Below are positions 19,235 to 29,555 of a DNA stretch of 64,000 nt, piece after piece. How positions within the stretch are numbered: the first letter of the stretch is position 1; each line of letters begins with the position of its first letter. The position numbers and the translations under genes were made by a program. The stretch comes from Yinghuangia soli (GTDB lineage: Bacteria; Actinomycetota; Actinomycetes; Streptomycetales; Streptomycetaceae): positions 319,838 through 383,837 of the forward strand of contig NZ_JAKFHA010000004.1 in NCBI RefSeq assembly GCF_021502675.1, written 5' to 3'. A model generated the notes under the pieces. It did not search any database. It was not told the origin of the DNA and saw only the letters and a list, made by a program, of their open reading frames with translations.

Positions 19235-19978
19235 ATGACTTCCGCACCACACAGCACGTCGCAGGGCGCCCGCGATGTCACGCAGGCCGTCATCCTGGCC
19301 GGTGGGCAGGGCTCCCGGCTGCGGCCGTACACCGACGACCGGCCCAAGCCCATGGTGGAGATCCCGGGGACCGGGATCCCGATCATCGGGCACCAGCTGC
19401 AGTGGCTGGCCGCCGAGGGGGTCACCGACGCCGTGGTGTCGTGCGGGCACCTCGCCGAGGTGCTCCAGGACTGGCTGAAGTCCGCGGAACTGCCCTTGAA
19501 CGTCTCGACCGTGGTGGAGACCGAGCCGCTGGGCCGCGGCGGCGGGCTGAAGTTCGCGGCGCGTGCGCTGCCGCGCCCGGACGAGCCGTGGTACGCGACC
19601 AATGGCGATATCTGGACGCGGTTCTCGTTGCGCGAAATGGCCGCCTTCCACGACGAGCGGCACGCTACCGCGACGCTGTCGCTGGCCCGGCCGCGCATCC
19701 CGTGGGGGGTCGTGGAGACCGACAAGTTCGGGCACGTGCTGGACTTCATCGAGGCGCCGCCGTCGCCGTACCTGATCAATGCGGGCGTGTACGTGTTCTC
19801 GCCGGAGTTCACCGCGCTGCTGCCGGACGTGGGCGACCACGAGCGGACCACGTTCCCGCGGCTGGCCCGGGAGCAGCGCCTGTCCGGCTTCCCGATCCCG
19901 CAGGGCGCGTACTGGCGGGCCATCGACACCGCGAAGGACCTGTCCGAGGCGGCGAAGGAACTGGCCGCGCTCAAGTAG
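19235..19978 (+). CDS. Sugar nucleotidyltransferase (NDP-sugar pyrophosphorylase)
   Basis: A 247-aa nucleotidyltransferase. The pyrophosphorylase signature LAGGQGSRLRPYTDDRPKPM (residues about 21-40) carries the catalytic Arg and Lys, followed by the NGDIW metal-binding Asp and a NAGVYVFSPE segment. The family activates a sugar 1-phosphate with an NTP to give an NDP-sugar; the exact pair (GDP-mannose, dTDP-glucose and so on) cannot be read from the sequence. It has no C-terminal hexapeptide domain. It faces a DegT-type sugar enzyme across a shared terminator, and both probably serve the same glycan or deoxysugar pathway. Confidence 0.88.
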   Translation: MTSAPHSTSQGARDVTQAVILAGGQGSRLRPYTDDRPKPMVEIPGTGIPIIGHQLQWLAAEGVTDAVVSCGHLAEVLQDWLKSAELPLNVSTVVETEPLGRGGGLKFAARALPRPDEPWYATNGDIWTRFSLREMAAFHDERHATATLSLARPRIPWGVVETDKFGHVLDFIEAPPSPYLINAGVYVFSPEFTALLPDVGDHERTTFPRLAREQRLSGFPIPQGAYWRAIDTAKDLSEAAKELAALK

Positions 19979-20023
19979 CGATCCGGGCGGGCGCGCACGC
20001 GGGTGCGGGCAGGCACGGCCCAG

Positions 20024-20060
20024 GGCACGGTACGCGGCATCGACCGCCGCGTACCGTGCC
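20024..20060. terminator. Bidirectional 15-bp hairpin terminator
   Basis: Perfect arms 20024-20038 and 20046-20060 with a 7-base loop, followed by a T-rich stretch. It separates the convergent nucleotidyltransferase and DegT-family genes. Confidence 0.85.
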
Positions 20061-20098
20061 TTTGCCGTTTCGGGTGCGCCCGGGGCTCGTGCCGGCGG

Positions 20099-21301
20099 TC
20101 AGCGCGAGGCGAGGAACGCCTCGACCTGCTCGTGGATGTAGGCGGTGTCCTCGTCGTCCATGCGGTGGTTCATCGGCACGATGAAGGCGTACTCCATGAC
20201 GCGGTCGGCGTTGGGGTAGCCGTCCGGGTCGGCGCGGTGCGCGATGTCCTTGAAGCCGGGCTGGCGCAGGATGTTGCCGGACCAGACGGTGCGCGTGGAG
20301 ATGCCGCGGTCCTCCAGGTACTGCTGCAGTTCGCCGCGGGAGAATCCGGCTTCGGGGTTGATGATGGCCGGGAAGTTGAGCCAGCCGGTGTCGAGGCCTT
20401 CGGTCTGGCGGGGCGGGATGAACGCCTCGGGGTGCTTGGCGAAGAAGGCGTGGTGGGCGGCGAAGTGCCGCTGCCGGGTGGCCAGGAAGCGCGGCAGCTT
20501 CTCCAGCTGGGCGAGGCCGAAGGCGGCGCCGAGTTCGCTGGGTTCGAAGTTCCAGCCGATCTCGTCGAAGATGAACAGGTTGTCGTAGAGCACGCCGTCG
20601 ATCTCCTCGAAGAAGTCGCGGTTGCCCTTCTTGGAGCCGAACAGCTGGAGTTCGGAGCGGCGGCCCCAGCGGCGCAGCATGAGGCCGCGGTCGCGCAGCG
20701 CTTCGTCGTCGACGAGGACCATGCCGCCGTTGCCGGCGCAGGTGATGATGTGGCTCATCGCGAAGCTGGTGACCGAGATGTCGGCGCGGGTGCCGGTGGG
20801 GGTCCCGCGCAGGGTGGCGCCGAGGGCGTCGCAGGAGTCTTCGACGACGGCGAGGCCGTGCCGGTCGGCGATCTCGCGGATGCGGTCCCAGTCGGGGGCG
20901 TTGCCGGCCAGGTTGGGGGTGAGGATGGCCTTGGTGCGGGGGCCGATGAGGCCTTCGAGGCGGTCCACGTCGATCTGGAACGAGTCGGGGTCGACGTCGG
21001 CGAGGACCGGGACGAGGCCGGCCTTGACCATGGGGGCGATGTCGGTGGAGAAGGTGAGGGTCGAGGTGATGATCTCGTCGCCGGGTTCGAGGCGGAGGAG
21101 TTCGATGGCGAGGTAGAGGGCGGACGACCCGGAGTTGCACATGAGGCCGTGGCTCTTGCCGAAGAGTGCGGCGACCTTCTGCTCCATGGCGGCGACGTTG
21201 CGGCCGATGGTCATGGCGCTGGGCGGGCCGTTGAGGATGGCCAGCATGGCGTCTATCTCGGCCTGGTCGTGGACGCTTCCGGCGTACGGGATCTTGCGCA
21301 T
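20099..21301 (-). CDS. DegT/DnrJ/EryC1/StrS-family PLP enzyme with Lys replaced by His (sugar 3-dehydratase-like)
   Basis: A 400-aa fold-type I PLP/PMP enzyme of the sugar aminotransferase family: CNSGSSALYLAIELL, IITSTLTFSTDI, the VEDSCDALGA cofactor Asp region and FEPSELGAAFGLAQLEKL. At the position of the Schiff-base lysine the sequence reads SFAMSHIITCAGNGG, giving His184. Known family members with His there (ColD, the E1 dehydrases, SpnQ) are PMP-dependent NDP-hexose 3-dehydratases rather than aminotransferases. I therefore infer a C3-deoxygenation role on an NDP-4-keto sugar. AGGGGG precedes the ATG. No ferredoxin or E3-type reductase is adjacent. Confidence 0.85.
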   Translation of the reverse strand: MRKIPYAGSVHDQAEIDAMLAILNGPPSAMTIGRNVAAMEQKVAALFGKSHGLMCNSGSSALYLAIELLRLEPGDEIITSTLTFSTDIAPMVKAGLVPVLADVDPDSFQIDVDRLEGLIGPRTKAILTPNLAGNAPDWDRIREIADRHGLAVVEDSCDALGATLRGTPTGTRADISVTSFAMSHIITCAGNGGMVLVDDEALRDRGLMLRRWGRRSELQLFGSKKGNRDFFEEIDGVLYDNLFIFDEIGWNFEPSELGAAFGLAQLEKLPRFLATRQRHFAAHHAFFAKHPEAFIPPRQTEGLDTGWLNFPAIINPEAGFSRGELQQYLEDRGISTRTVWSGNILRQPGFKDIAHRADPDGYPNADRVMEYAFIVPMNHRMDDEDTAYIHEQVEAFLASR

Positions 21302-21388: not shown

Positions 21389-21409
21389 TCATAGCTATCA
21401 TGGCTATGA
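21389..21409. promoter_or_regulatory. Inverted repeat in the aldo/keto reductase-GntR promoter
   Basis: TCATAGC and GCTATGA form perfect 7-bp arms around a 7-base spacer. A -10-like TATCAT lies in the spacer (21396-21401). It is the likely operator of the GntR regulator encoded by the second gene of the operon. Confidence 0.6.
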
Positions 21410-21477: not shown

Positions 21478-22422
21478 GTGCGGTACACGACAGTGGGCAC
21501 GTCGGGGCTGAAGGTCTCCGAGGTCGGTCTGGGCTGCAACAACTTCGGCATGCGCATAGAGGAGCCGGCCGCGCACAAGGTGGTGGGCGCCGCCCTCGAT
21601 GCGGGCGTCACCTTCTTCGACACCGCCGACATGTACGGCGGCGGCCGGTCCGAGGAGATGCTCGGGCGTGCGCTGGGTGCCCGCCGCGACGACGTGGTGG
21701 TGGCGACCAAGTTCGGTGCGCCGAGCAAGGACGTGTACGGCGGCGGTGCGTCGCGGCGCCATGTCATGCGGGCCTGCGAGGCCAGCCTGCGGCGGTTGGG
21801 CACCGACCACATCGACCTGTACTACCTGCACTTCCCGGACCCGCAGACACCGGTCGACGAGACGCTCGCGGCGCTGGACGACCTGGTCCGGCAGGGCAAG
21901 GTCCGCTACATCGCGAACTCGAACCTGGCCGGCTGGGAGCTCGTGGACGCCGACCACATCGCGCGCAACGCGAACAGCGCCCGGTTCGTGGCCACCCAGC
22001 TGGAGTGGAGCCTGCTGTCCCGTGAGGTGGAGCGCGACACGGTGCCGGCCGCCCGGCACCTGGGCCTCGGGGTCATCCCGTACTTCCCGCTGAAGTCGGG
22101 GCTGCTGAGCGGCAAGTACCGGCGCGGGGCGGACTTCCCCGAGGGTTCCCGGCTGGCCGCGGGCCCGTGGTTCGCGAGTGTGGCCACCGACGAGAACTTC
22201 GCGATCGTCGAGCGGCTGACGGACTACGCCGAGGCGCACGGCCGGACGCTGCTGCAGCTGGCGCTGTCGTGGCTGGCCGCACAGCCCGAGGTGCCGTCGG
22301 TGCTGGTCGGTGCGACCACGCCGGAGCAGGTGCTGGCCAATGCGGAGGCGTTCGTGCCGCTGACCGCGGACGAGGTCGCCGAGATCGCCGCGCTGGCGGT
22401 GCCGGTGGAGGGCGGCCGGTGA
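21478..22422 (+). CDS. Aldo/keto reductase
   Basis: A 314-aa aldo/keto reductase with an intact tetrad: Asp and Tyr in DTADMYGG, Lys in VATKFG, His in DLYYLHFPD. The VPSVLVGATTPEQVLAN segment near the C-terminus is the usual cofactor-phosphate region. It reduces an unidentified carbonyl with NADPH. The frame is open from 21400, but GTG 21478 is chosen because GGGGAG stands 5 bases upstream and the conserved RYTTVGTSGLKVSEVGLG start follows. It is translationally coupled to the GntR gene (stop and start overlap), so its substrate or product may be the GntR effector. Confidence 0.9.
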   Translation: MRYTTVGTSGLKVSEVGLGCNNFGMRIEEPAAHKVVGAALDAGVTFFDTADMYGGGRSEEMLGRALGARRDDVVVATKFGAPSKDVYGGGASRRHVMRACEASLRRLGTDHIDLYYLHFPDPQTPVDETLAALDDLVRQGKVRYIANSNLAGWELVDADHIARNANSARFVATQLEWSLLSREVERDTVPAARHLGLGVIPYFPLKSGLLSGKYRRGADFPEGSRLAAGPWFASVATDENFAIVERLTDYAEAHGRTLLQLALSWLAAQPEVPSVLVGATTPEQVLANAEAFVPLTADEVAEIAALAVPVEGGR

Positions 22423-23198
22423 GCGACCGTGTGCCGGGGGCCGGTCCGGCGTCCGGCGCCGCCGACCCGGTGCGGCCGCAGAGCGTCGCGGACGCGGTCG
22501 CGGGGCGGCTGCGCGCGCGGATCCTGGACGGGGTGATCCCGGACGGCGGGACGCTGCCCAAGCAGGACGACCTGATGGCCGAGTTCGGGGTCGGGCGCAC
22601 GACGGTGCGGCAGGCGTTCCGGGTGCTGGAGACCGAGGGCCTGATCACGGTGCTGCGCGGCAACACCGGGGGTGCGGTCGTGCATGTGCCGCGGCCGGCG
22701 GATGCGGCGCACATGTTCGGCATGGTGATGCATGCCCGGCATGTGCCGCTGGCGGATCTGGCGGGGGCGCTGCGGCAGTTGGAGCCGGTGTGTGCGGCGT
22801 TGTGCGCGGCGCGCCCCGACCGGGATGCGGAGGTGCTGCCGCGGTTGCGGGAGGTGCATGCCCGGATGGCGGCGGCGCTGGACGACGGGCAGGCGTTCCT
22901 GCGCGAGAACCGGGCGTTCCACGAGGCGTTGGTGGAGTGCTGCGGGAACGCGACGATGCAGATTCTGCTGGGTGCGGTCGAGGTGCTGTGGGCCCGGCAG
23001 GAGCAGTCGTGGGCGGGTGCGGCGCTGGCCGATACCGGTCGCGGGGTGCGGGAGGCGGGTGTGCGGGTGCACGGCCGGCTGATCGATCTGATCGCGGCGG
23101 GGGACGAGGCCGAGGTGTACCGCGTGGCGGTGAGCCATATCGCGGAGGCGCAGGAGTATCCGCTGCGCGACCACAGCGAGCGCCCGGTGCGGGTCTGA
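22419..23198 (+). CDS. GntR family regulator (FCD/FadR subfamily)
   Basis: A 259-aa regulator. The winged helix spans about residues 20-85 (SVADAVAGRLRARILDG, PKQDDLMAEFGVGRTTVRQAFRVLETEGLI), followed by an all-helical FCD effector domain with the expected metal-binding character (ENRAFHEALVECCGN and late VSHIAEA). FCD proteins are usually repressors released by a carboxylic acid ligand. The GTG start overlaps the aldo/keto reductase stop by 4 bases. The inverted repeat at 21389-21409 is its likely site; it may also act on the divergent catabolic cluster 3-8 kb downstream. Confidence 0.9.
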   Translation: MSDRVPGAGPASGAADPVRPQSVADAVAGRLRARILDGVIPDGGTLPKQDDLMAEFGVGRTTVRQAFRVLETEGLITVLRGNTGGAVVHVPRPADAAHMFGMVMHARHVPLADLAGALRQLEPVCAALCAARPDRDAEVLPRLREVHARMAAALDDGQAFLRENRAFHEALVECCGNATMQILLGAVEVLWARQEQSWAGAALADTGRGVREAGVRVHGRLIDLIAAGDEAEVYRVAVSHIAEAQEYPLRDHSERPVRV

Positions 23199-23357: not shown

Positions 23358-24953
23358 TCAGAAGGGGCTGGGCAGTCGCGGGATCGGCACGCTGATCACC
23401 GTCGGGCGGTCTGCGGCGAGTGCGTCGCGGAGGGCGGGGCCGAGGTCGGCGGGGGAGCCGACGGCGAGGCCGTAGGCGCCGAAGGAGCGGGCGAGGCGGG
23501 CCCAGTCGGGGTTGTGGAGGGTGGTGCCGATCTCCCGGCCGCCGAAGCGTTCGCGCTGGTCGCGGTTGGAGTTTCCGTAGGCGCCGTCGTCGAAGACGAT
23601 GTTGACGGTGTTGATGCCGTATTGCACGGCGGTGGCCAACTCGGCGGCGGCGAAGAGGAATCCGCCGTCGCCGTTGACGGTGACGACGGGCAGGTCGGGG
23701 CGGGCGGCCTTGGCGCCGAGGCCGGTGGGGAAGGCGAATCCGAGGGTGCCCATGTACGAGGTGGCGAGGTAGCCGCGCGGGGTGTGCACGGGGTAGCGCA
23801 TGTGGCACATGTAGCCGACGGTCGTGGTGCAGGGGATGAGGACGGCGTCGTCGGGGAGGGTGGCGCGCAGGGTGTCGACGATGGCGGCCTGGGGTCCGAT
23901 GGCGGCGAGTTGGCGGTCGACGGTGGTGCGCATGGCCTGGGTCTCGGCGGTGCGGGAGGGCCGGGGCGGGCAGGTGCGGCGGAGTTCGGCGAGGAGGGCT
24001 TCGGCGGCGAGTGCGGCGTCCGCGGCGACGGCGACGGCGGCGGTGTGCTGCCGGTCGAATTCGGTGGGGTCGGCGTCGATGTGCACGAGGGGGATGTGCG
24101 GGGCGATGCCGGATCCGGTGAAGCGGGTGCCGATGGCGAGGACGGCGTCGGCGTCGTCGAGGACGGGGCGGAGGCGGGGGTTGAACCACATGGTGCCGAC
24201 GCTGAGGGGGTGGCGGTCGTCGACGGCGCCTTTGCCTTCGCGGGTGGTGACGATGGGGGTCTGGAGGTGTTCGGCGATGGCGGTGAGTGCGGCGTGGGCG
24301 CCTGCGGTGACGGCGCCGCCGCCGGCCCACAGGAGGGGGCGTTCGGCGTTGCGGAGGAGTGCGGCGGCGGCGCGGACGGCGTCGGGGTCGGGGGCGGTGC
24401 GGCGGGGTTCGGCGGCGTCGAGGAGGGTGACGTCGGCTTTTTCGGCGAGGGCTTCGGGCGGGATGTCGAGGACGGCGGGGCGGGGGCGTCCGGTGCGCAG
24501 GGCGGCGAAGGCGCGGTGCACGGCGGCGGGGACGTCGGCGGCGTGCCGGATGCCTTGGGTGTGGCCGGCGACGGGGGCGACGATGTCGAGTTGGCGGTGG
24601 ATTTCGTGGAGGGCGCCGGTGCCGCGGTCGATGGCGTCGCGGGGGATCTGCCCGGCGAGGAGCAGGACGGGCGAGGAGGCGGCGTAGGCGGTGGCGAGTC
24701 CGGCGCCGGCGTTGTAGAGGCCGATGCCGGGGACGACGAGGGCGCAGCCTTCGCGGCCGCTGATGCGGGCGTAGCCGTCGGCCATGTAGGTGGTGGCCTG
24801 TTCGTGGCGGGTGGTGGTGAAGGCGATGCCGGGTTCGTCGTGGAGGGCGTCGAGGAGGTGCATGATCTGGTCGCCGGGGAGGCCGAAGAGGCGGGTGACG
24901 CCTTCGCGGTGGAGTTGGGCGGCGAGGGCTTGGGCGCCGGTCATGAGGGTCAT
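23358..24953 (-). CDS. Thiamine diphosphate-dependent enzyme (acetolactate synthase/benzoylformate decarboxylase type)
   Basis: A 531-aa TPP enzyme. The N-terminal pyrimidine-binding domain carries the catalytic Glu51 in TTRHEQATTYMADGYAR; the central domain has PLLWAGGG and an IGTRFTGSG segment; the C-terminal PP domain has the NGDGGF motif with the metal ligand Asp. The family decarboxylates or carboligates 2-keto acids. Without a regulatory subunit next to it, a catabolic role (2-keto acid decarboxylation or carboligation) is more likely than branched-chain amino acid synthesis. Its ATG overlaps the stop of the enoyl-CoA hydratase gene (ATGA), so the two are translationally coupled. Confidence 0.88.
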   Translation of the reverse strand: MTLMTGAQALAAQLHREGVTRLFGLPGDQIMHLLDALHDEPGIAFTTTRHEQATTYMADGYARISGREGCALVVPGIGLYNAGAGLATAYAASSPVLLLAGQIPRDAIDRGTGALHEIHRQLDIVAPVAGHTQGIRHAADVPAAVHRAFAALRTGRPRPAVLDIPPEALAEKADVTLLDAAEPRRTAPDPDAVRAAAALLRNAERPLLWAGGGAVTAGAHAALTAIAEHLQTPIVTTREGKGAVDDRHPLSVGTMWFNPRLRPVLDDADAVLAIGTRFTGSGIAPHIPLVHIDADPTEFDRQHTAAVAVAADAALAAEALLAELRRTCPPRPSRTAETQAMRTTVDRQLAAIGPQAAIVDTLRATLPDDAVLIPCTTTVGYMCHMRYPVHTPRGYLATSYMGTLGFAFPTGLGAKAARPDLPVVTVNGDGGFLFAAAELATAVQYGINTVNIVFDDGAYGNSNRDQRERFGGREIGTTLHNPDWARLARSFGAYGLAVGSPADLGPALRDALAADRPTVISVPIPRLPSPF

Positions 24954-25798
24954 GCGGTTTCCCCGGGCGTCGCAGGGGCGGTGGCGGCGGTGCTGCCGAA
25001 GCGGGGGGTGCGGCGTTCCAGGAATGCGGTGACGGCTTCGCGGTGGTCGGCGGTGGTGAAGGTGAGGGCTTCGAGGGCGAGTGAGGTGTCGAGGAGCCTG
25101 CCGACGCGGTCGTCGAGTTCGGCGTTGGCGAGGCGTTTGTTGAAGCGCAGGGCGATCTGGGGTCCGCGGGCGAGGCGTTCGGCGAGTGCGGTGGCCTGGG
25201 CGAGGACGTCTTCGGCGGGGCAGACGTGGTTGACGAGGCCGAAGCGGAGGGCTTCGTCGGCGGTCATCATGTCGCCGGTCATGAGGTATTCCTTGCCGCG
25301 GTTGAGGCCGAGGAGGAGGGGCCACAGGATGGCGCCGCCGTCGCCGGCGACGAGGCCGGCGTTGACGTGGGGGTCGCCGATGCGGGCGGTGTCGGCGAGG
25401 AAGGTGACGTCGCAGAAGAGGGCGAGGGTGGCGCCGAGGCCGAGTGCGTCGCCGTTGATGGCGGCGATGACGGGCTGCGGTATGGCGAGTTGGGCGCGGA
25501 CCAGGGCGGCGGATCCTTCGAGGAGTTCGGGGTTGCCGTCCGGGTAGCCGGTGGCGAGTTTGGCGTCCATGCCGGCGAAGTCGGCGCCGACGCAGAAGGC
25601 TTTGCCGCCGGCGCCGGTGAGGAGGACGACGTCGACGTGGTCGTCGGTGGCGATGCGGCGGAAGAGCGGGGTGAATTCGGCGTGCATCTCGGGGCTGATC
25701 GCGTTGCGGCGGGCCGGGCGGTCCAGCGTCACCGTGAGGATGCGGCCGCGTAGTTCGGTGCGCAGGTGGGTGAAGCCGTAGTGGTCGCCGTCGGCCAT
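24950..25798 (-). CDS. Enoyl-CoA hydratase/isomerase family protein
   Basis: A 282-aa crotonase. The oxyanion-hole segments are KAFCVGADF near residue 67 and INGDALGLGATLALFCDVTFL near residue 115, with the DPHVNAGLVAGDGGA loop after. The family hydrates, isomerises or cleaves acyl-CoA substrates. AGGGAG lies 7 bases upstream of the ATG at 25798. It is the first gene of a two-gene minus-strand operon with the TPP enzyme, divergent from an aldehyde dehydrogenase-led operon across an AT-rich control region. Confidence 0.9.
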   Translation of the reverse strand: MADGDHYGFTHLRTELRGRILTVTLDRPARRNAISPEMHAEFTPLFRRIATDDHVDVVLLTGAGGKAFCVGADFAGMDAKLATGYPDGNPELLEGSAALVRAQLAIPQPVIAAINGDALGLGATLALFCDVTFLADTARIGDPHVNAGLVAGDGGAILWPLLLGLNRGKEYLMTGDMMTADEALRFGLVNHVCPAEDVLAQATALAERLARGPQIALRFNKRLANAELDDRVGRLLDTSLALEALTFTTADHREAVTAFLERRTPRFGSTAATAPATPGETA

Positions 25799-25933: not shown

Positions 25934-25964
25934 ATCATCCTCATCTTGTAATCATTATGATGAT
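25934..25964. promoter_or_regulatory. Divergent control region with nested palindromes
   Basis: An AT-rich patch between the divergent crotonase and aldehyde dehydrogenase operons. Outer arms ATCATC (25934-25939) and GATGAT (25959-25964) enclose an inner palindrome ATCAT-T-ATGAT (25951-25961). A -10-like TATCAT is at 25933-25938. The half-site ATCAT/ATGAT also occurs around the GntR operator at 21397-21410, which suggests common control. Confidence 0.5.
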
Positions 25965-26010
25965 GGCGCTTGGCCGCCAGGAATCGCCGGAAGTGCCGGA
26001 AGGACTGCGT

Positions 26011-27483
26011 GTGATCCGCTTTGCCCAGCACGCCCGGCTTGCCGGGGCCTATCTGCCCGCGTACGGAGCGGTGGCCGGCGACGGGCCGCGTACCGGACTT
26101 GGGCGCGCCGCGCCGCATGTGAACCCGGCGACCGGGCGCGTGCAGGCGCAGGTGGCGATCGCCGGGCCGGAGGATGTGGACGAGGCGGTCGCGGCCGCCC
26201 GCGCGGCGCAGCGGGTTTGGCGGGCGACGCGGGTGGATCTGCGGCGGGACGCGCTGCTGCGGCTGGCCGGCCTGGTCCGGCGCGATGCGGGGCGGTTCGC
26301 CGCGCTGCTGACGCTGGAGGCGGCCGTCCCGGCGGCGACGGCGCAGGCGCTGCCCGCGCGGGCTGCGGACTACCTTGCGTACTACGCGGGGTACGCGGAC
26401 AAGCTGGAGGGCCGGGTCGTCCCGGTCTTCCCGGAGGCGGCGTTCGACTACACGCTGCCGGAGCCGGTCGGTGTGGTGGCGGCGCTGACCACGTGGAACG
26501 GCGGTGTGTCGGCGCTGGCCCGCAAGGCGGCTCCGGCGCTGGCCGCGGGGTGCGCGGTGGTCGCCAAGCCGAGCGAACTGGCGCCGTTCTCGGCTTTGCT
26601 GCTGGGGGAGTTGGCCTTGGAGGCGGGGCTGCCGCCCGGTCTGCTGCAGGTGCTGCCGGGGGATGCGGAGGCGGGGGCGTACCTGGCCGGGCATCCCGGC
26701 ATCGACAAGATCACTTTCACCGGCGGGTCGGCCGCGGGGCAGGCCGTGGCCCGGGCGGCGGCCGCGCACACCACTCCGATGCTCCTCGAACTCGGCGGCA
26801 AGTCGGCCAACTTGGTCTTTCCGGACGCCGACCTCGAGGCGGCGGCGCGGTTCGCCGCCGCGCTGCCGATGTCGATGGCCGGGCAGGGGTGCGTGTTCCC
26901 GACCCGGCTGTACGTGCACGAGGACGTGTACGCGCCGTTCCTGGACACGGTCGCGCGGACCGTCGCCGCGCTGCCCGTCGGGGACCCGCTGGACCCGGCG
27001 ACCGCGGTCGGCCCGCTCATCTCGGCTGCGGCCCGCACCCGCGTCCTCGCCATGATCGACGCGGCTGCCAAGGACGCCGGCGCGGTGCGCGTCACCGGCG
27101 GCGCGGCCGGCACCGGGGACCTCGAGGCCGGCCATTTCGTGCACCCGTGCCTGGTCGAACAGCCGGACCACGACGCGGAGATCGCCCGCTGCGAGGTGTT
27201 CGGGCCGGTGCTGTGCGCATGGCCGTTCCGGGACGAGGCGCACGCCCTGGACCTGGCCAATGCCACCGGGTACGGCCTCGCCGGCTACGTGTTCACCCGC
27301 GATGTGGCCCGCGCGCACCGCGTGGCGGCCGCCTTGGACGCCGGGTACGTGTCGGTCAACGGGTTCGCCGCGCTGCCGGCGTCCGCGCCGTTCGGCGGCC
27401 GCCGCGGCAGCGGCCACGGCCGCGAGGGCGGCGCCGAGGGCCTCCGCGAGTTCGTGTCCTGGAAGAACGTGTACCTCGCCTGA
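26011..27483 (+). CDS. Aldehyde dehydrogenase family protein
   Basis: A 490-aa NAD(P)-dependent aldehyde dehydrogenase. The catalytic pair is intact: Glu260 in LELGGKSA and Cys294 in GQGCVFPTR. KPSELAPFSALLLGELALEAGLP, FTGGSAAGQ and a C-terminal FGGRRGSGHGREGG are standard family features. It oxidises an aldehyde to the acid. The frame is open from 25957, but the GTG at 26011 has GGAAGGA 6 bases upstream and is preferred. First gene of a four-gene catabolic operon. Confidence 0.9.
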   Translation: MIRFAQHARLAGAYLPAYGAVAGDGPRTGLGRAAPHVNPATGRVQAQVAIAGPEDVDEAVAAARAAQRVWRATRVDLRRDALLRLAGLVRRDAGRFAALLTLEAAVPAATAQALPARAADYLAYYAGYADKLEGRVVPVFPEAAFDYTLPEPVGVVAALTTWNGGVSALARKAAPALAAGCAVVAKPSELAPFSALLLGELALEAGLPPGLLQVLPGDAEAGAYLAGHPGIDKITFTGGSAAGQAVARAAAAHTTPMLLELGGKSANLVFPDADLEAAARFAAALPMSMAGQGCVFPTRLYVHEDVYAPFLDTVARTVAALPVGDPLDPATAVGPLISAAARTRVLAMIDAAAKDAGAVRVTGGAAGTGDLEAGHFVHPCLVEQPDHDAEIARCEVFGPVLCAWPFRDEAHALDLANATGYGLAGYVFTRDVARAHRVAAALDAGYVSVNGFAALPASAPFGGRRGSGHGREGGAEGLREFVSWKNVYLA

Positions 27484-28301: not shown

Positions 28302-28328
28302 CCGCCGACTGAGCGAGGAGTGACCGAG

Positions 28329-29551
28329 ATGATCCCGTGGCTGGTCGATCTGGACGCGCATGTCGTGGAGCCGCCGGATGTGTGGTCGTCGCGGCTGCCC
28401 GCGCGGTACCGGGATGCGGGGCCGCGCATCGAACTGCTGCCGGGGAGCGTGCCGGTGCTCACCGGCGGCACGTACCGCGAGGCGCCGGGCACCGAGGGGC
28501 CCGATGTCGCGTGGTGGCATTACGAGGACCACTACTACTCGGTGAAGCGCCTGATCGCCGCGGCCGGGTACCCGGCGGACGAGATCACGATGACCGGCAT
28601 CACGTACGACGAGATGCGGCCGGGGTGCTGGCGTACCGCGGAGCGGCTTGCCGACATGGATGCGAACCATGTGCAGGCGCAGATGTGCTTCCCGAACTAC
28701 CCGCGGTTCTGCGGGCAGTTGTTCCTGGGCGGCAAGGACCGCGAGCTGGCGCTGCTGTGCGTGCGCGCGTACAACGACTGGATGGTCGAGGAGTGGTGCG
28801 GCACTTCGGGCGGGCGGTTGATCCCGCTGTGCCTGATCCCTTTGTGGGACGCCGAGTTGGCGGCGGCCGAGGTACGGCGCAATGCGGCGCGCGGGGTGCG
28901 GGCGGTGGCGTTCAGCGAACTGCCGACGTATCTGGGCCTGCCGAGTATCTACTCCGGCTACTGGGAGCCTTTGTTCGAGGCGTGCGAGGAGACCGGCACG
29001 GTCCTGTCGATGCACATCGGGTCGGGCACCAAGACGCCGCAGGCGTCCCCGGACGGCCCGGATGCGGTCGCGTCGACGATCATCTTCGGGAACTCGGTGG
29101 CGTCGATGGCCGACTGGATGTTCTCCGGGGTGCTGCACCGGCGGCCGCGGCTGCAGCTGCTGTTCGCCGAGGCGCAGATCGGGTGGATCCCGTATCTGCT
29201 GGACCGCATCGACGACGTGTGGAGCACGCACCGCGGCTGGTCCGGCAGCCAGTCGCTGTGCCCGGAGCCGCCGTCGACGTACTACCACCGGCAGATGTTC
29301 TCGTGCTTCTTCAAGGACGCGGTCGGCGTGGAACTGCTGCACCGGGTCGGCGAGGACAACGTCGCGTTCGAGACCGACTATCCGCACCAGGACGGCACGT
29401 GGCCGCATTCGCGCAAGGCCGCCGAGGAGCAGTTCGGGCATTTGAGCCCGGAGTCGGTGCACAAGCTCGCCCGCGGCAACGCGATCCGGCTGCTCGGCCT
29501 GGACCTGCCGGAGCCGGAACCGGAACCCGCCGGACCGCGTGCGGGGGCGCG

Positions 29552-29555
<4 letters not shown>
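28329..29555 (+). CDS. Amidohydrolase (ACMSD-like metal-dependent hydrolase/decarboxylase)
   Basis: A 408-aa amidohydrolase_2 protein. The metal motif is DLDAHVVEPPDVW (Asp9, His11), followed by the MCFPNYPRFCGQ loop, LSMHIGSGT with the strand-5 His and FETDYPHQDGTWPHS with the terminal Asp. This subgroup includes ACMSD-like non-oxidative decarboxylases and hydrolases of aromatic-derived or cyclic substrates. Start at ATG 28329 rather than GTG 28320, since GAGGAG is 8 bases before the ATG. Its stop overlaps the next start (GTGA), showing coupling to the acyl-CoA dehydrogenase. Confidence 0.88.

What the first reader, a model, noticed from the sequence alone, without database searches (positions are those of the whole stretch)
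20099..21301. DegT-family enzyme with His184 in place of the PLP lysine
The usual SFxxxK motif reads SFAMSH. Known relatives with His here are PMP-dependent sugar 3-dehydratases (ColD, E1, SpnQ type) that remove the C3 hydroxyl of an NDP-4-keto hexose. The loop after His is one residue longer than in those enzymes (five residues before GNGG), so it may be a separate branch. A nucleotidyltransferase faces it across a terminator, suggesting a 3-deoxysugar pathway whose other genes are elsewhere.
Basis: partly seen in the sequence, partly recalled or inferred. Interest (0 to 1): 0.65.

Follow-up and report, generated by a model that had tools for sequence, protein, structure and literature searches.

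The report
Sugar-dehydratase relative inside catabolic regulon
This bacterial gene makes a vitamin-B6 enzyme whose closest relatives strip a hydroxyl group off activated sugars, but it belongs to an undescribed actinobacterial branch with a rebuilt pocket that is wired into breakdown pathways, so it probably does the same hydroxyl-removing chemistry on a nutrient instead of building a surface sugar.

Summary
Window 20099-21301(-) encodes a 400-aa DegT-fold protein with His184 in place of the PLP lysine and five residues before GNGG. Tree and structure put it with the PMP-dependent sugar 3-dehydratases (nearest solved fold E1, then ColD), not with Lys aminotransferases. It lacks E1's Fe-S cysteines.

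The one-residue-longer loop marks a real clade. Its proteobacterial branch sits beside rfbF/rfbG, so it is very probably a CDP-sugar 3-dehydratase. The actinobacterial branch (67 sequences, including this gene) keeps every catalytic and cofactor residue checked, but replaces positions identical in both sugar branches (Y217->A/S, T123->D, N90->L, F377->W, K279->variable in E1 numbering). Its genes lie in catabolic surroundings with short-chain dehydrogenases, not in sugar-nucleotide clusters.

The facing nucleotidyltransferase is a Streptomycetaceae core gene with no link to this one. In this genome all four clade members carry one conserved 21-bp palindrome upstream, as do the copies in relatives. 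Its other sites front aldo-keto reductase, SDR, GMC oxidase and TIM-barrel genes. Genomes lacking the clade lack the palindrome.

Most likely it is a ColD-type (Fe-S-free) dehydroxylase of an alpha-hydroxyketone made by those oxidoreductases. The substrate is unknown and the chemistry is untested.

The parts
20099..21301 (-). DegT-fold, His-type putative PMP-dependent dehydratase, 400 aa
20750..20752 (-). His184 codon (CAC), in the position of the cofactor lysine
   Evidence: read; alignment
21389..21409 (.). 21-bp palindromic operator-like site TCATAGCTATCATGGCTATGA between the divergent DegT and aldo-keto reductase genes; also upstream of the other three clade genes in this genome
21481..22422 (+). 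aldo-keto reductase, divergent from DegT across the operator; a homologous reductase elsewhere in the genome shares the same operator
22419..23198 (+). GntR-FCD regulator, candidate operator-binding protein (inferred); relatives lie next to two other operator sites
20022..20062 (.). 17-bp hairpin between the convergent DegT and nucleotidyltransferase genes, possible terminator without a T-run
19256..19978 (+). sugar-1-phosphate nucleotidyltransferase-like core gene; a neighbour, judged not functionally linked
23358..25325 (-). TPP-dependent enzyme in the adjoining catabolic genes (context)
24950..25798 (-). enoyl-CoA hydratase (context)
25957..27483 (+). aldehyde dehydrogenase (context)
28320..29555 (+). 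Amidohydro_2 family protein (context; the family is also found beside other clade members)

Best explanation
The gene encodes a PMP-dependent, Fe-S-independent (ColD-type) reductive dehydroxylase that has left nucleotide-sugar biosynthesis and works in a catabolic regulon. Proposed mechanism: a partner oxidoreductase (SDR, GMC oxidase or aldo-keto reductase) interconverts a ring alcohol and an alpha-hydroxyketone. PMP in the DegT enzyme forms a ketimine with the ketone. His184 removes the C4' proton of PMP and drives loss of the neighbouring hydroxyl. Hydrolysis gives the deoxygenated ketone, ammonia and PLP, and an amino donor such as glutamate regenerates PMP. Shown by sequence: fold, clade, His184, intact cofactor residues, absent Fe-S ligands, clade-wide pocket replacement, catabolic neighbours, shared operator. 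Inferred: cofactor, chemistry, the redox partner's role, and that the substrate is a polyhydroxylated ring (3-keto sugar or keto-cyclitol) and not an NDP-sugar.
For: His184, Asp155 and Asp158 (E1 H220, D191, D194), Ser57-Gly58, Ser179, Asn251, Arg337 and Asn343 are identical in 67/67 clade members. The AlphaFold2 model (pLDDT 94.5) matches E1 best (Z 51.3, 380 aligned, 1.9 A), then ColD (Z 49.5), within a crowded family. Three of the four E1 Fe-S cysteines are absent, as in ColD. In the tree the actinobacterial group is one clade (94/97), sister to a proteobacterial group (99/98) linked to rfbF/rfbG. Residues identical in both sugar groups are replaced in the actinobacterial group. SDR genes lie within 2 genes in 22/40 loci (17.4% against 6.0% farther away, p = 8e-5). 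One operator fronts all four clade genes in this genome and also AKR, VOC-SDR, GMC and TIM-barrel genes. Sites with up to 2 mismatches occur only in the five sampled genomes that carry the clade. Mechanism taken from the review PMC8987622.
Against: No activity, cofactor or expression data exist. The neighbouring genes differ between lineages, so one common substrate is not evident. The operator evidence comes from two related genera only. Gene neighbours in actinobacteria can be incidental, and the AKR enrichment alone is not significant (p = 0.08). Some positions shared with E1, such as R337, N343 and R346, are still kept.
Confidence: 0.58

Rival explanations
1. It is a true NDP-4-keto-hexose 3-dehydratase for a 3-deoxysugar, acting on a dTDP-, GDP- or UDP-sugar made by genes elsewhere in the genome.
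For: All characterised His-type relatives do this (PMC8987622). The sister proteobacterial clade, which shares the longer loop, sits beside rfbF/rfbG. Catalytic residues are intact.
Against: Residues conserved in both sugar clades are replaced in all 67 actinobacterial members. CDP-glucose 4,6-dehydratase is over its cut-off in only 1 of 30 clade-bearing genomes. Queries for rfbG, methyltransferase and glycosyltransferases found no hit in any actinobacterial clade locus; the rfbF query hit only the unlinked core gene. The operator links it to catabolic genes. dTDP-, GDP- and UDP-sugar routes were not searched.
Confidence: 0.2
2. It is a PMP/PLP enzyme with another outcome on the same kind of substrate, for example amination of a keto-sugar or keto-cyclitol, epimerisation or elimination, as SpnQ transaminates when no reductase is present.
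For: SpnQ shows aminotransferase activity with PLP and glutamate (PMC8987622). The fold is shared with aminotransferases. Position 308 (E1 F345) is His in 29/67.
Against: His is invariant where aminotransferases have Lys. Neighbours are catabolic rather than amino-sugar genes.
Confidence: 0.14
3. It is a non-catalytic descendant that binds PMP or a metabolite and serves as a sensor or scaffold in the regulon.
For: In this lineage it is always operator-linked, with several paralogs per genome.
Against: All catalytic residues are invariant over 67 diverse sequences, which is not expected without catalysis.
Confidence: 0.05

Closest known systems
E1, CDP-6-deoxy-L-threo-D-glycero-4-hexulose-3-dehydrase (RfbH type; PDB 3bcx)
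   Same: Same fold (Z 51.3, 32% identity), His220 equivalent, D191, D194, S215, N288 and R374 equivalents
   Different: No [2Fe-2S] ligands (C251, C253, C261 replaced); Y217->A181, T123->D87, N90->L62, F377->W340, K279->L242; His-to-GxGG loop one residue longer; no rfbG nearby; RfbH model scores 277 bits against a cut-off of 423
ColD, GDP-4-keto-6-deoxymannose 3-dehydratase (PDB 2gms, 3b8x)
   Same: His base, no Fe-S cluster, same fold (Z 49.5, 30% identity)
   Different: Long separate branch in the tree; different loop sequence and pocket; no colitose genes were recognised in the loci examined
Proteobacterial rfbF-rfbG-linked His-type clade (Roseibium L180, Leisingera L181, Palleronia L183, Sinorhizobium L182, Ensifer L185)
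   Same: Nearest sister clade (47-49% identity), same longer loop, no Fe-S ligands
   Different: Sits in sugar-nucleotide/polysaccharide clusters and keeps E1's Y217, T123, N90, F377 and K279
Oxidation/beta-elimination glycoside degradation (GlycDH, OGE/CGE; PMC10628242)
   Same: Oxidoreductase plus TIM-barrel 'sugar phosphate isomerase' acting through 3-keto sugars; similar gene families occur at the operator sites here
   Different: No DegT enzyme was seen in the passages read; orthology of the TIM-barrel proteins was not shown (best solved hits by sequence: Lmo2234 2g0w and 5hmq)

Membership tests
DegT/DnrJ/EryC1 family (Pfam PF01041) | profile match over the curated cut-off | tested here: met
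   260 bits against 19.8
Lys-type sugar aminotransferases (VIbeta/ASAT) | internal-aldimine lysine in SFxxxK | tested here: not met
   His184; His in 67/67 clade members; no other aligned conserved Lys
Lys-type sugar aminotransferases (VIbeta/ASAT) | groups with aminotransferases in a tree | tested here: not met
   separated from the Lys-type rows at 100/99
NDP-sugar 3-dehydratase superfamily (E1/ColD/SpnQ) | His replacing Lys, with cofactor residues intact | tested here: met
NDP-sugar 3-dehydratase superfamily (E1/ColD/SpnQ) | NDP-4-keto-hexose as substrate | not testable with these tools
   pocket residues conserved in the sugar clades are replaced; needs an assay
E1/SpnQ type | [2Fe-2S] ligand cysteines | tested here: not met
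   E1 C251->S216, C253->variable, C261->mostly G; only C193 kept
E1/RfbH type | partner CDP-glucose 4,6-dehydratase | tested here: not met
   TIGR02622 in this genome at most about 60 bits against a cut-off of 278
E1/RfbH type | NCBIfam equivalog score | tested here: not met
   277 bits against a cut-off of 423 for RfbH
ColD type | PMP regenerated by glutamate, no Fe-S | tested here: inconclusive
   absence of Fe-S ligands met; glutamate use not testable

The most novel reading that the evidence does not exclude
A whole actinobacterial clade of His-type DegT enzymes carries out PMP-dependent reductive dehydroxylation of non-nucleotide alpha-hydroxyketones (3-keto sugars, keto-cyclitols or hydroxylated alicyclic and steroid-like ketones) in catabolism, with glutamate as reductant: a catabolic use of chemistry known so far only from deoxysugar biosynthesis.
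Probability: 0.42. Interest if true: 0.78.

Novelty: new variant of a known kind. Interest (0 to 1): 0.58.

Why it matters
In the literature I could search, PMP-dependent C-OH removal is described only for nucleotide sugars. A catabolic branch would add a B6-based route for removing hydroxyl groups in aerobic bacteria, and would mean that many genes annotated 'DegT/DnrJ/EryC1/StrS aminotransferase' in Acidimicrobiia, mycobacterial-type actinobacteria and Embleya/Yinghuangia are misnamed. The shared operator turns the question into a testable regulon: find what induces it and the substrate class follows.

Tried and rejected
Nucleotidyltransferase as pathway partner: rejected, since it is a family core gene. 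Fe-S/E3-dependent E1 mechanism: rejected on missing ligands. Ordinary aminotransferase: rejected. Mycofactocin-coupled SDR as a general partner: only 1 of 10 neighbouring SDRs reaches the mycofactocin-coupled SDR model's cut-off. AKR as a clade-wide partner: not significant, though it is operator-linked in this lineage. Steroid side-chain role: the f6 genomes have a ChsH2/thiolase/acyl-CoA-dehydrogenase operon around the gene, but other lineages do not. Literature searches for a catabolic DegT dehydratase found nothing. The primary E1 and ColD papers were not held, so the functional meaning of E1 D194, Y217 and F345, and the identity of the four Fe-S cysteines, rest on my memory of the E1 literature (Smith et al. 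2008 and earlier work).

Full report
OBSERVATION. The ORF at 20099-21301(-) is real: 400 aa, ATG start, Pfam PF01041 at 260 bits. The motif is SFAMSH184IITCAGNGG. Nearly every relative I collected has His there, and the five residues between His and GxGG run through the whole clade. E1-type sequences from other Streptomycetaceae read SFYPAHHxTMGEGG, with four.

WHAT IT IS BY DESCENT. The best solved relative by sequence is E1 (E = 4e-56), then ColD. An AlphaFold2 model built on 28 clade members (pLDDT 94.5, pTM 0.92) gives E1 as top match (Z 51.3, 380 residues, 1.9 A) and ColD next; Lys-type sugar aminotransferases follow closely, as expected for one fold family. In a careful tree the Lys-type aminotransferases separate at 100/99. 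E1-type sequences form one clade (100/100). The longer-loop sequences form another (100/100), made of a proteobacterial group (99/98) and an actinobacterial group of 42 sampled rows (94/97). ColD and the outgroup are long branches, so their exact position is unsure. In an earlier FastTree of 90 rows the actinobacterial group had 67 rows and weaker support (0.734).

TWO BRANCHES, TWO SETTINGS. All five proteobacterial loci have glucose-1-phosphate cytidylyltransferase (rfbF) and CDP-glucose 4,6-dehydratase (rfbG) directly before the gene (annotated; by tblastn). They are therefore very probably CDP-sugar 3-dehydratases. The actinobacterial branch is found in 43 of 296 genomes of the Acidimicrobiia-containing class, 30 of 201 genomes of a mycobacterial-type family labelled f6, and 5 of 61 genomes in the own-lineage sample. 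None of the loci examined has rfbG or glycosyltransferase hits; the rfbF query hits only the unlinked core nucleotidyltransferase. CDP-glucose 4,6-dehydratase passes its cut-off in 1 of 30 clade-bearing genomes and not in this one.

THE POCKET. Cofactor and catalytic positions are identical across the 67 actinobacterial sequences: H184, D155, D158, S57, G58, S179, N251, R337, N343 (E1 H220, D191, D194, S85, G86, S215, N288, R374, N380). Positions identical in E1-type (13/13) and proteobacterial (5/5) sequences are replaced clade-wide: Y217 to A/S181, T123 to D87, N90 to L62 (I in two), F377 to W340, K279 to a variable residue at 242. Three of the four E1 Fe-S ligands are gone. That Y217, D194 and F345 line E1's active site, and which cysteines bind its cluster, is from memory; the primary paper was not held. 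The review PMC8987622 describes the His base, the Fe-S/E3 route of E1 and the glutamate route of ColD. With no Fe-S ligands, the ColD route is the one that remains.

NEIGHBOURHOOD. In f6 genomes the gene lies in a conserved operon of FAS1-type dehydratase, ChsH2-type zinc/OB protein, thiolase-like proteins, SDR and three acyl-CoA dehydrogenases. In Acidimicrobiia, SDR, MarR, Amidohydro_2 and luciferase-like monooxygenase genes recur. Over 40 loci, SDRs make up 17.4% of genes within two positions against 6.0% farther away (p = 8e-5); related loci are not fully independent, so the p-value is optimistic. In the window itself the gene is followed, across a divergent promoter region, by an aldo-keto reductase, a GntR-FCD regulator, a TPP enzyme, enoyl-CoA hydratase, aldehyde dehydrogenase, an Amidohydro_2 protein and an acyl-CoA dehydrogenase. 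The facing nucleotidyltransferase occurs in 35 of 37 own-family genomes whether or not the DegT gene is there, so it says nothing about a sugar pathway.

THE OPERATOR. Between DegT and the reductase lies a perfect palindrome, TCATAGCTATCATGGCTATGA, at 21389-21409 (0.02 expected in the window at up to 2 mismatches). It is conserved in all six aligned orthologous spacers (one arm mismatch in Y. seranimata). A genome scan at up to 3 mismatches finds eight sites in this 9.7-Mb genome and none for the reversed-pattern control. Four lie upstream of the four clade genes: C34 (window), C28, C7 (before a VOC-like gene that directly precedes DegT) and C14. The other four front an AKR/VOC-SDR pair, a GMC oxidase, and two TIM-barrel genes, one of them divergent from a second GMC oxidase; GntR and Amidohydro_2 genes lie close by two of these. 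The clade genes examined in G001, G005, G020 and G030 also carry it, one with four mismatches. In 61 genomes, sites with up to 2 mismatches occur only in the five that hold the clade; a same-genus genome without the clade has none. The regulator is not identified; the GntR-FCD protein is the candidate by position.

MECHANISM. Operator partners that oxidise or reduce alcohols, a TIM-barrel enzyme whose relatives act on keto sugars and dehydroshikimate (with my own knowledge of 5hmq as QuiC1; compare PMC10628242), and a His-type PMP enzyme fit one scheme: an alcohol on a polyhydroxylated ring is oxidised to a ketone, and the DegT enzyme removes the neighbouring hydroxyl by the ColD route. The fold, clade, residues, context and operator are shown. 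The cofactor, reaction, direction of the redox partners and substrate are inferred. The ChsH2-type operon in f6 suggests that the substrate differs between lineages.

VERDICT. It belongs to an undescribed branch of that family that is regulated with, and embedded among, catabolic genes.

Noticed in passing
G000 C28:38800, C50:21017, C34:12994, C14:12875 (loci L217, L218, L215, L214): Four further sites of the window's 21-bp palindrome front GMC oxidoreductase, AP_endonuc_2 TIM-barrel, and AKR/VOC-SDR genes, defining a small regulon.
   Followed up: partly
L144 2837-13268 and a dozen similar f6 loci (L140, L143, L145, L149-L157): Conserved operon of FAS1-type dehydratase, ChsH2-like OB/zinc protein, thiolase-like proteins, DegT, SDR and three acyl-CoA dehydrogenases, resembling steroid side-chain retro-aldol modules but with a DegT enzyme inside.
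   Followed up: partly
L062, L048, L169: Clade members lie near alpha-L-rhamnosidase-type genes in three separate loci; L061 and L169 lie near probable rhamnose isomerase, aldolase and kinase genes, hinting at plant glycoside degradation.
   Followed up: partly
L053 (Myxococcota-labelled MAG; genome G075): A 'Deltaproteobacteria' MAG holds three clade copies; the one sampled is nested among Acidimicrobiia sequences: transfer or binning error.
   Followed up: no
L060 9141-9713 and relatives: A 190-aa protein directly before DegT in several loci (its Rhodococcus plasmid counterpart is annotated VOC family) has no Pfam or PDB match; possible dedicated partner.
   Followed up: partly
window 20022-20062: A 17-bp hairpin without a T-run between convergent genes, a strong fold (z = -4.35) missed by the terminator scan.
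   Followed up: partly
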